64,000 bases of DNA. It comes from Bacteroidia bacterium (GTDB taxonomy: Bacteria > Bacteroidota > Bacteroidia > 2-12-FULL-35-15). Where the stretch lies: positions 58,089-122,088 of the forward strand of contig JAGVJJ010000010.1 of assembly GCA_020051175.1 (NCBI GenBank), read 5' to 3'. Every line of letters begins with the position of its first letter. Positions within the stretch are counted from its first letter, which is position 1. The notes below the pieces were generated by a model, which was not told where the DNA came from, did not search any database, and saw only the letters and a program-made list of their open reading frames with translations. Both the position numbers and the translations under genes were made by a program. This document shows positions 39,856 through 49,638 of this stretch, in pieces.

Positions 39856-40653
39856 TCAGGCTATCGTAACCTGATTTTTACCGCTGTAATCATTAATCCT
39901 ATTGATATACCTCAGGTTCGGCTTGAAATTATTTTGCTTGACATCATAAAGAAAAATAACTCCAAAGCAATATTTACTGATAGAGCCCGGACGAACATGG
40001 TTATCTTTCATAAGCTTAATGAATGGCGAAGGCGAAAGCTTTTCCTGCTTTACTTCCGCTATAACCACGTTAGGAAGGTTCTTTTCGGCAGCATCGTTTT
40101 TAAACTGCAGATTGATATCCAGTGTAAGCCTTTCTTTGGAACGTTTGTTCACCAGGGTAATCCGGGAACAGTTGGACCATAATTTAGGGTACAGGTTGCC
40201 TGCAGGATAATGCGTATTTTCATTCAAAAACTGCTCTGCCTTGTCTTTTATCACAAAGTCGGTTTCTTTACGTTTGATGCGGTTTTTAATGGTCCGGCCC
40301 TTATTGTTCTTGAATTTTATCTCGAAATAATGCAGGTTGGAATCTACATAAATGCGGTGACGTATTTTATAGCGGCTCGGGCGGCCGCGGTGGTGCTCCA
40401 TGTACATCTTAAAATCAGGCGTATCAAAGTAAAGGGTTTCGTACCTGCTGGCACGTATGCCGTTTATTTCCAATATCCTGTAATCGTCACGAATCTGGTT
40501 TAAAAAGCCCTGTAACTGGTCATAACGGAATACAAACTTTGTATCCGTCCTGTTCATCAGCGAAACATTTTCCATCTCATTCAGGCTGATGGGCTCAAAT
40601 GTTGCAAGGGTTGAATTTATTGTGTTGCTGTAGGTTTCCATTTTAGCTTTCAA
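39856..40653 (-). CDS. VTC-domain polyphosphate polymerase-like protein
   Basis: ~261-265 aa (start 40653 or 40641); NRTDTKFVFRYDQL, ASRYETLYFDTPDFKMYMEHHRGRPSRYKIRHRIYVDSNLHYFEIKFKNNKGRTIKNRI. Confidence 0.87.
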   Translation of the reverse strand: MKAKMETYSNTINSTLATFEPISLNEMENVSLMNRTDTKFVFRYDQLQGFLNQIRDDYRILEINGIRASRYETLYFDTPDFKMYMEHHRGRPSRYKIRHRIYVDSNLHYFEIKFKNNKGRTIKNRIKRKETDFVIKDKAEQFLNENTHYPAGNLYPKLWSNCSRITLVNKRSKERLTLDINLQFKNDAAEKNLPNVVIAEVKQEKLSPSPFIKLMKDNHVRPGSISKYCFGVIFLYDVKQNNFKPNLRYINRINDYSGKNQVTIA

Positions 40654-47872: not shown

Positions 47873-48751
47873 ATGGACAAAAATAATAATCAACCTCTAG
47901 CAGAAGTTTTTGGATTTCCCATTGATAATGAAACTGATAGAGCAAAACGATACAGAAAAAATAAGCTCTGTCCGTATAACAATATAGTCTCAAATTGTAC
48001 CAAAAACAGTATTGAGTTTCCTTTGGGGGTTTGTAGTCTTAACCACAAAGGAAAACCAGTAGTCATATGCCCTATAAGATTTCGAGAAGATTGGACAATT
48101 ATCAGTGATGTTGCGAGCTTCATTTTTAAAGATAAAACCACTTGGACACACGTTGGCGAAGTCAGACTCAAAGATAAACACGGTAAATCAGCCGGAAACA
48201 TTGACTATGTTTTGGTTTCTTATGACAGTACAGGTCGTGTACTTGACTTTGGATCACTTGAAGTCCAGTCGGTTTATATTTCGGGTAATTTAACAGGCCC
48301 ATTTACGGCATATCTTGAAAAACCAAAACCATCTTTCACTTGGACGCAAGCTTTTAAATATCCCAAACCCGACTATTTATCTTCTTCAAGGAAAAGACTT
48401 ATCCCACAAATCATTGCCAAAGGATCGATTTTAAAACAGTGGAATAAAAAACAAGCGGTTGCATTACAGACCACATTTTACAACACATTACCTCCGCTGC
48501 CAGAATGCGATAAATCAAAGGCCGATTTCGCTTTCTTTTTATATGACCTTGTTCCGGACAAGAAAACAAAAACCTTGTTGCTTAGATTACAGCGAATTGT
48601 TTATACCAAGTTTATAGACGCGTTAGAACAGATTGCAAAGTTTGAAGCAGGGTCAATAACCGAATTCACTGATCTTTTACAGAAAAAACTCGACACAAAA
48701 CTTTCTGGTAATTCTGACGCTACTAACCTCGAAAATATTGTCGTAGAATGA
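47873..48751 (+). CDS. NotI-family type II restriction endonuclease
   Basis: MDKNNNQPLAEVFGFPIDNETDRAKRYRKNKLCPYNNIVSNCTKNSIEFPLGVCSLNHKGKPVVICPIRF (Cys-rich NotI-like N-terminus); GNIDYVLVSYDSTGRVLDFGSLEVQSVYISG candidate D...ExQ site. Confidence 0.85.
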   Translation: MDKNNNQPLAEVFGFPIDNETDRAKRYRKNKLCPYNNIVSNCTKNSIEFPLGVCSLNHKGKPVVICPIRFREDWTIISDVASFIFKDKTTWTHVGEVRLKDKHGKSAGNIDYVLVSYDSTGRVLDFGSLEVQSVYISGNLTGPFTAYLEKPKPSFTWTQAFKYPKPDYLSSSRKRLIPQIIAKGSILKQWNKKQAVALQTTFYNTLPPLPECDKSKADFAFFLYDLVPDKKTKTLLLRLQRIVYTKFIDALEQIAKFEAGSITEFTDLLQKKLDTKLSGNSDATNLENIVVE

Positions 48752-49638
48752 TAAACCAACAAATGACAATGTTTGAGATTTCAGAACACAAAAATGAACG
48801 TGTTGTAAATATTGCGTCCGTACCCCAACGTAGTCCATTCCGTTATCCTGGCGGCAAGACCTGGCTTATTCCAACCATTCGTCAATGGTTGAAACAAGGT
48901 GCGCCTCCCCCTTTGCTAATTGAACCTTTTGCAGGCGGGGGCATTGTTAGTCTGACTGCTGCTTTTGAAAAACTGGCAGACCATATTACAATGGTTGAAA
49001 TGGATGAAGAAATAGCTGCAGTTTGGGAAATAATTTTAAACGGCAAGAACAAATGGCTTGCTGATAAAATATTTTCTTTTGACCTTACCCATGAGAATGT
49101 TAAAGCAGAATTGGACAAACCAAACAAATTGCTCCAAGACATTGCATTCTGTACTATTTTAAAAAATAGAGTTTTTCACGGTGGAATATTAGCGAAAGGA
49201 TCAGGGATGATCAAAAATGGAGAGAATGGCAAGGGCCTTTCTTCTCGTTGGTATCCTAAAACATTACACGACAGGATTCGCGCTATTGAATACGTCAAAA
49301 ATAAAATTGACTTTATTTCCGGAGACGCATTCGAAATTTTAGAACAAAACAAAAATAACAACCAAGCATTTTTTTTTATAGATCCTCCCTATACTATTGC
49401 AGGTAAACGTTTATATACATACTTCGACATAGACCACGAAAAGCTATTCCAGTTGACCGCCAAGCTTAAAGGGAAGTTTATGTTAACCTATGACGATACA
49501 AGAGAAATTAGGCAACTTGCTGATAAGTATGACTTGCAATACAGAACAATTCCAATGAAGACAACTCATCATTTAAAAAAGAATGAAATCATTATTTCCG
49601 ACAATTTTATTTGGTGGACAGGAAGCAACGATCGGTAA
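48748..49638 (+). CDS. D12-class (Dam-family) DNA adenine N6-methyltransferase
   Basis: 296 aa; SPFRYPGGKTWLIP (motif I), LLIEPFAGGGIVSL, FFFIDPPYTIAGKRLYTYFDIDHEKLF (DPPY); start overlaps upstream stop (ATGA). Confidence 0.93.
   Translation: MINQQMTMFEISEHKNERVVNIASVPQRSPFRYPGGKTWLIPTIRQWLKQGAPPPLLIEPFAGGGIVSLTAAFEKLADHITMVEMDEEIAAVWEIILNGKNKWLADKIFSFDLTHENVKAELDKPNKLLQDIAFCTILKNRVFHGGILAKGSGMIKNGENGKGLSSRWYPKTLHDRIRAIEYVKNKIDFISGDAFEILEQNKNNNQAFFFIDPPYTIAGKRLYTYFDIDHEKLFQLTAKLKGKFMLTYDDTREIRQLADKYDLQYRTIPMKTTHHLKKNEIIISDNFIWWTGSNDR

What the first reader, a model, noticed from the sequence alone, without database searches (positions are those of the whole stretch)
47873..49638. NotI-family endonuclease paired with an adenine methyltransferase: probable new R-M specificity
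Seen: a Cys-rich NotI-like REase translationally coupled (ATGA overlap at 48748-48751) to a D12-class methyltransferase with FRYPGGK and DPPY motifs. Established: D12/Dam-family enzymes methylate adenine N6, and NotI cuts GCGGCCGC, which has no adenine on either strand. Inference: this MTase cannot protect a NotI site, so either the REase has diverged to an adenine-containing target or the MTase is not its true partner. The cassette is compact, has no controller gene, and sits between pheT and an FAD monooxygenase, consistent with acquisition as a unit.
Basis: partly seen in the sequence, partly recalled or inferred. Interest (0 to 1): 0.75.

Follow-up and report, generated by a model that had tools for sequence, protein, structure and literature searches.

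The report
NotI-type restriction system, methylated base doubtful
This is a common two-gene bacterial DNA-cutting and self-protection system related to the enzyme NotI; its protecting enzyme, labelled an adenine methylase, more probably marks cytosine, which would remove the mismatch that made the finding look strange.

Summary
They are a true pair. In 71 of 80 other loci, mostly Bacteroidota but also Chlorobiota, cyanobacteria and a Phycisphaerae bin, the two lie within 40 nt in the same order; a Thermus plasmid has the pair too.

The paradox rests on 'D12 means m6A', which is unsafe. The nearest solved relative, by sequence and fold, is M.CbeI, a D12-annotated DPPY enzyme shown to make N4-methylcytosine in GGCC, the core of the NotI site. 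Other NotI-family REases pair with m5C or TSPPY (m4C-type) MTases. One natural swap is telling: the Paraburkholderia pBN5 REase is 85% identical to the Aeromonas REase, yet its neighbour is an m5C MTase, whereas Aeromonas and pEST4011 have the D12 type (46-48% identical to the window's). The simplest reading is that this D12 MTase makes m4C at a NotI-like site. The exact site is unresolved; an A-containing target with m6A remains the main rival. Ordinary system; misannotation point of moderate interest.

The parts
47873..48751 (+). NotI-family restriction endonuclease gene (292 aa, stop included)
   Evidence: PF12183 E=6e-52; predicted fold matches NotI 3c25, E=7.6e-7, prob 1.00, low-confidence model
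47969..48070 (+). Cys4 metal site: codons C33, C42, C54, C66 (rubredoxin-like Fe site in NotI)
   Evidence: invariant in 10 close relatives and wherever aligned in 25 family members
48203..48268 (+). catalytic PD-(D/E)XK variant: D111 and E130-x-Q132
   Evidence: D111 and E130 invariant; Q132 invariant except in the Chlorobiaceae fusion proteins (His); NotI is known for Q in place of K (PMC4081073)
48362..48421 (+). conserved segment PKPDYLSSSRKRLIPQIIAK, shared by the D12-paired REases and the two C5-paired REases of the same clade
   Evidence: alignment
48748..48751 (+). ATGA stop/start overlap (translational coupling)
   Evidence: sequence; the same 4-nt overlap in 42 of 80 related loci
48748..49638 (+). 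alpha-class (D12) DNA methyltransferase gene (296 aa), annotated type 'adenine methylase', probably N4-cytosine
   Evidence: PF02086; nearest solved relative M.CbeI 7m6b by profile (E=9e-11) and by fold (E=9.9e-13)
48838..48858 (+). motif FRYPGGK (AdoMet side)
   Evidence: sequence
49381..49392 (+). motif DPPY (catalytic)
   Evidence: sequence
49486..49497 (+). motif TYDD, shared with M.CbeI and DmtB-like enzymes; Dam and DpnM have SN(H/S)(D/S) here

Best explanation
A complete Type II restriction-modification system. A NotI-family PD-(D/E)XK endonuclease with a Cys4 iron-type site cuts unmodified DNA at a GC-containing palindrome. The co-translated alpha-class MTase protects the host at the same site, most likely by N4-methylcytosine rather than N6-methyladenine. 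Shown: both genes, their motifs, the conserved pairing, and the exchange of this MTase class for a C5-cytosine MTase beside a near-identical REase. Inferred: that the REase cuts, that the methylated base is cytosine, and that the target resembles a GGCC-core site. Not determined: the exact site.
For: (1) Pairing: of 80 loci found with the REase family profile, 71 have the MTase within 40 nt downstream, 42 with the same 4-nt overlap, and 6 more have it nearby with broken or shifted ORFs. A 4-kb Aeromonas plasmid has only mobC, REase and this MTase annotated. (2) D12 does not imply m6A: M.CbeI and DmtB are alpha-class DPPY enzymes making m4C at GGCC (M.CbeI was annotated D12 N6-adenine-specific; PMC3425538). 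M.CbeI is the best PDB match of the window MTase by profile (E=9e-11; the next DNA MTase, DpnM, E=0.13) and by fold (TM 0.81 against at most 0.74 for Dam). (3) Partner swap: the pBN5 REase is 85% identical to the Aeromonas REase and 82% to that of pEST4011, but its neighbour is an intact C5-cytosine MTase with a Vsr gene on the other side, and the plasmid has no D12 MTase. Aeromonas and pEST4011 have the D12 MTase, 46-48% identical to the window's and in one supported clade with it (98/97). (4) Other non-D12 partners seen in the family are cytosine types: C5 (P. amygdali, X. citri, Sedimenticola, Sphingobium, Roseivivax) and TSPPY beta-class (Acinetobacter NEB 394, Klebsiella, G383, G421). (5) The 82%-complete own genome has 14 GCGGCCGC sites and no PF00145 or PF01555 MTase, so no other cytosine MTase of those two families was found to protect a NotI-type site.
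Against: No methylation data exist for this strain or, in the tools, for any relative. In the MTase tree M.CbeI/DmtB is not the sister of the window clade: the CbeI-Dam identity (29%, to the own genome's Dam-like enzyme) exceeds CbeI-window (23.5%) and window-Dam (21.7%). A target holding both A and C could explain the swap with m6A (GATC, for example, is m6A- or m5C-protected in different known systems; own knowledge). The close swap is one case. CGGCCG avoidance in sampled carrier DNA (0.65 against 0.93) was not seen in whole-genome counts of Chlorobiaceae.
Confidence: 0.6

Rival explanations
1. One reading: the MTase is a genuine N6-adenine enzyme and the REase has diverged from NotI to an adenine-containing palindrome, giving a new or at least different specificity.
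For: D12 profile and DPPY, NCBI annotation of relatives as 'DNA adenine methylase'. The REase is remote from NotI (no PDB sequence match even by profile; 15% identity by fold). GATC is more avoided in carriers (median 0.56 against 0.79).
Against: D12 plus DPPY does not fix the base (M.CbeI, DmtB). A near-identical REase is paired with an m5C MTase, so any A-containing site must also hold a methylatable C. The GATC signal is bimodal, absent in several carriers, accompanied by an equal shift in CTAG, and the own genome has a separate Dam-like MTase.
Confidence: 0.32
2. The MTase is an orphan or a passenger and the REase is protected by another MTase elsewhere.
For: A second D12 (Dam-like) MTase exists in the genome; the assembly is only 82% complete.
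Against: The conserved overlap and order in 71 of 80 loci, and plasmids that carry only this pair. No PF00145 or PF01555 MTase was found in the genome.
Confidence: 0.04
3. The pair is an inactive relic.
For: Some related loci are broken (L044, L051, L071, L075, L080, L112).
Against: Both window ORFs are full length with all conserved catalytic residues.
Confidence: 0.04

Closest known systems
NotI (R.NotI, Nocardia otitidiscaviarum; PDB 3c25; Pfam PF12183)
   Same: Family profile, Cys4 metal site, D and ExQ catalytic residues, fold match
   Different: No significant sequence match to the solved NotI; cut site unknown here; MTase partner is alpha-class
M.CbeI of Caldicellulosiruptor bescii and DmtB of Anabaena (alpha-class m4C, GGCC)
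   Same: RYPGGK, DPPY, RLY and TYDD..E.R segments; M.CbeI is the nearest solved relative by sequence and fold
   Different: About 24% identity, a separate clade in the tree; methylated base of the window enzyme untested
'NotI family restriction endonuclease' + 'DNA adenine methylase' pairs on Thermus brockianus pTbrSNM4-1c, Aeromonas plasmids and pEST4011
   Same: Same two gene families in the same order
   Different: REases 50% (Thermus) or 28-29% (others) identical; function of those pairs also untested
Dam / DpnM (m6A, GATC)
   Same: Class alpha fold, DPPY
   Different: Do not match the window MTase at E<=0.001 in the PDB profile search; SNxD in place of TYDD
PD-lambda-5_B (PADLOC)
   Same: Best PADLOC profile of the MTase, E=8e-45
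   Different: PD-lambda-5 is described as a compact prophage RM+Abi-like system (PMC9519451); PADLOC gave only a Type II REase match for the window REase

Membership tests
NotI family REase (PF12183) | profile score above the family cut-off | tested here: met
   177 against 22 bits
NotI family REase (PF12183) | Cys4 metal site | tested here: met
   C33, C42, C54, C66 conserved across the family; metal itself not tested
NotI family REase (PF12183) | PD-(D/E)XK active site with Q for K | tested here: met
   D111, E130, Q132; NotI Q in PMC4081073
NotI family REase (PF12183) | NotI fold | tested here: met
   3c25 is the top hit, E=7.6e-7, prob 1.00; model mean pLDDT only 60, TM 0.43
NotI isoschizomer | cuts GCGGCCGC | not testable with these tools
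   14 such sites in the genome, no PF00145/PF01555 MTase; not avoided (4 against 2 expected in the own sample)
Type II restriction-modification system | REase and MTase genetically linked as a conserved pair | tested here: met
   71 of 80 loci within 40 nt
Type II restriction-modification system | MTase protects the REase target | not testable with these tools
   needs expression or methylome
Dam/D12 N6-adenine MTase | class alpha motif order, DPPY | tested here: met
   the motif is shared with m4C enzymes
Dam/D12 N6-adenine MTase | NCBIfam dam subfamily cut-off (TIGR00571) | tested here: not met
   53.8 against 114.85 bits
Alpha-class m4C MTase (M.CbeI/DmtB) | falls in the CbeI/DmtB clade | tested here: not met
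   separate supported clade; nearest solved structure all the same
Alpha-class m4C MTase (M.CbeI/DmtB) | makes N4-methylcytosine | not testable with these tools
   indirect support only: the C5 partner swap

The most novel reading that the evidence does not exclude
A widespread clade of enzymes annotated 'DNA adenine methylase' (paired with NotI-family REases in Bacteroidota, Chlorobiota, Cyanobacteria, Thermus and broad-host-range plasmids) are alpha-class N4-cytosine MTases, a second lineage besides M.CbeI/DmtB, interchangeable in evolution with m5C MTases at one NotI-like site.
Probability: 0.55. Interest if true: 0.5.

Novelty: new member of a known kind. Interest (0 to 1): 0.35.

Why it matters
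If the m4C reading is right, a D12 label cannot be used to predict m6A, and NCBI-style 'adenine methylase' names on this clade are wrong. Such names steer the reading of methylomes and the choice of methylation for transforming carriers. The close REase pair with different MTase chemistry (pBN5 against Aeromonas/pEST4011) is a ready-made natural experiment for finding the shared site.

Tried and rejected
Palindrome avoidance to find the site: in carrier loci GATC and CTAG (4-mers) and CGGCCG (top differential 6-mer, 0.65 against 0.93) stand out. But GATC is bimodal and absent in several carriers, CTAG shifts as much as GATC, which points to lineage confounding, and CGGCCG counts in whole Chlorobiaceae genomes do not differ between carriers and non-carriers, so I draw no site from it. 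Interrupted palindromes gave nothing clear (no control set). The NotI sequence itself could not be aligned: no PDB sequence match to the REase, and no coordinates were available for an overlay of DNA contacts. Literature: the NotI structure paper is not held; no paper in the library was found under PF12183 or NotI-like family terms; the NEB 394 papers, searched by term, gave no motif for its NotI-family system. Insertion site: genes downstream of pheT differ between congeners, so no clean empty site was found. A closer kinship of the window MTase to M.CbeI than to every other alpha-class enzyme was tested and is not supported by the tree.

Full report
WHAT IS THERE. The window carries an 879-bp gene (47873-48751) overlapping by ATGA an 891-bp gene (48748-49638), both on the + strand, between pheT and an FAD monooxygenase. 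The first matches Pfam NotI at E = 6e-52. It has the four invariant Cys and the D…ExQ residues of the family, and its (low-confidence) predicted fold finds NotI 3c25 as the only clear PDB match. The second matches the D12 class, with FRYPGGK and DPPY.

THE PAIR IS REAL AND COMMON. One scan of GTDB species genomes gave 446 relatives of the REase; of the 80 kept, 71 have the MTase within 40 nt downstream, 42 of them with the same 4-nt overlap; six more have it nearby with broken or shifted ORFs and three show none. Carriers include many Bacteroidota families, Chlorobiota, two Oscillatoria, a Phycisphaerae bin and a Peregrinibacteria bin. By tblastn, a Thermus plasmid carries the pair at 50% identity for both proteins. 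The module is absent from the 36 other genomes of its genus that were searched, while REases 80-84% identical occur in other families and classes, which fits horizontal acquisition. The option that the MTase is not the true partner is thus very unlikely.

WHY THE PARADOX IS WEAK. 7m6b is M.CbeI, an alpha-class enzyme annotated as D12 N6-adenine-specific and carrying DPPY, yet shown to make N4-methylcytosine in GGCC; DmtB of Anabaena does the same at the inner cytosine (PMC3425538). GGCC is the centre of GCGGCCGC. By contrast the Dam-like MTase elsewhere in the same genome matches DpnM and Dam strongly.

PARTNERS ACROSS THE FAMILY. NotI-family REases on plasmids and in genomes are paired with C5-cytosine MTases (P. 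amygdali, X. citri, Sedimenticola, Sphingobium, Roseivivax, Paraburkholderia), with beta-class TSPPY MTases (Acinetobacter NEB 394, Klebsiella, G383, G421; SPP(Y/F) is the m4C hallmark according to PMC3425538) or with the D12 type. On the REase tree the C5 label needs at least three changes, and the Paraburkholderia REase groups within an otherwise D12-paired clade. It is 85% identical to the Aeromonas REase, nearly identical over the C-terminal half, but lies beside an intact C5 MTase with a Vsr gene on the other side, and its plasmid has no D12 MTase. REases that alike should cut the same site. So the D12 MTase of Aeromonas and pEST4011 (46-48% identical to the window's; same supported clade) protects a site that a C5-cytosine MTase can also protect. 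The simplest reading is a cytosine-modifying D12 enzyme. This is inference: a site holding both A and C would also fit, and the step from the Aeromonas enzyme to the window enzyme rests on 46-48% identity and shared motifs.

OWN GENOME. It has 14 GCGGCCGC sites (one in this window at 40381-40388), no PF00145 and no PF01555 MTase, and one further D12 MTase, Dam-like. The assembly is 82% complete. If the REase did cut NotI sites, this MTase would probably have to be the one protecting them; the data do not decide.

SITE. Not resolved. Avoidance gave a GATC signal confounded by lineage and a CGGCCG signal that failed a whole-genome check in Chlorobiaceae.

MECHANISM. Standard Type II restriction-modification: the REase cuts unmodified incoming DNA and the co-translated MTase marks the host. 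Shown: genes, motifs, pairing, partner exchange. Inferred: activity, base, site.

VERDICT. A good observation of an ordinary, widely spread R-M system whose two halves databases already name. The useful correction is that the expected mark is more likely m4C than m6A (about 0.6 against 0.3).

Noticed in passing
L014-L017, L019-L024, L026-L028, L030 (Chlorobiaceae genomes), e.g. L014:928-2262: The NotI domain is fused behind an N-terminal helical, ferritin-like/DUF2383-like domain (weak PF09537 match) in 440-545 aa proteins. In the two fusion sequences aligned, the ExQ glutamine is replaced by His. I saw no MTase within about 1.5 kb in the loci held.
   Followed up: partly
L014, L016, L017, L019, L020/L232, L021, L028: In these Chlorobiaceae loci the fused NotI gene faces a second NotI-like ORF in opposite orientation about 0.5-1 kb away.
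   Followed up: no
G000:C46:38787-39671 (L196:8788-9672): A second D12 MTase in the own genome, close to DpnM and Dam, with no neighbouring REase seen; probably an orphan GATC enzyme.
   Followed up: partly
window 40381-40388: A GCGGCCGC (NotI) site inside the window, one of 14 in the genome.
   Followed up: yes
L213:3577-5508, L215:9620-11551, L225:3337-5354, L226:3154-5244: A variant order, D12 MTase upstream of a pEST4011-like NotI-family REase, in G302, G310, G409 and G448.
   Followed up: no
L033-L112 flanks: CTAG is strongly depleted in carrier loci (median 0.19 of expected against 0.48 in non-carriers); cause unknown, probably lineage.
   Followed up: no
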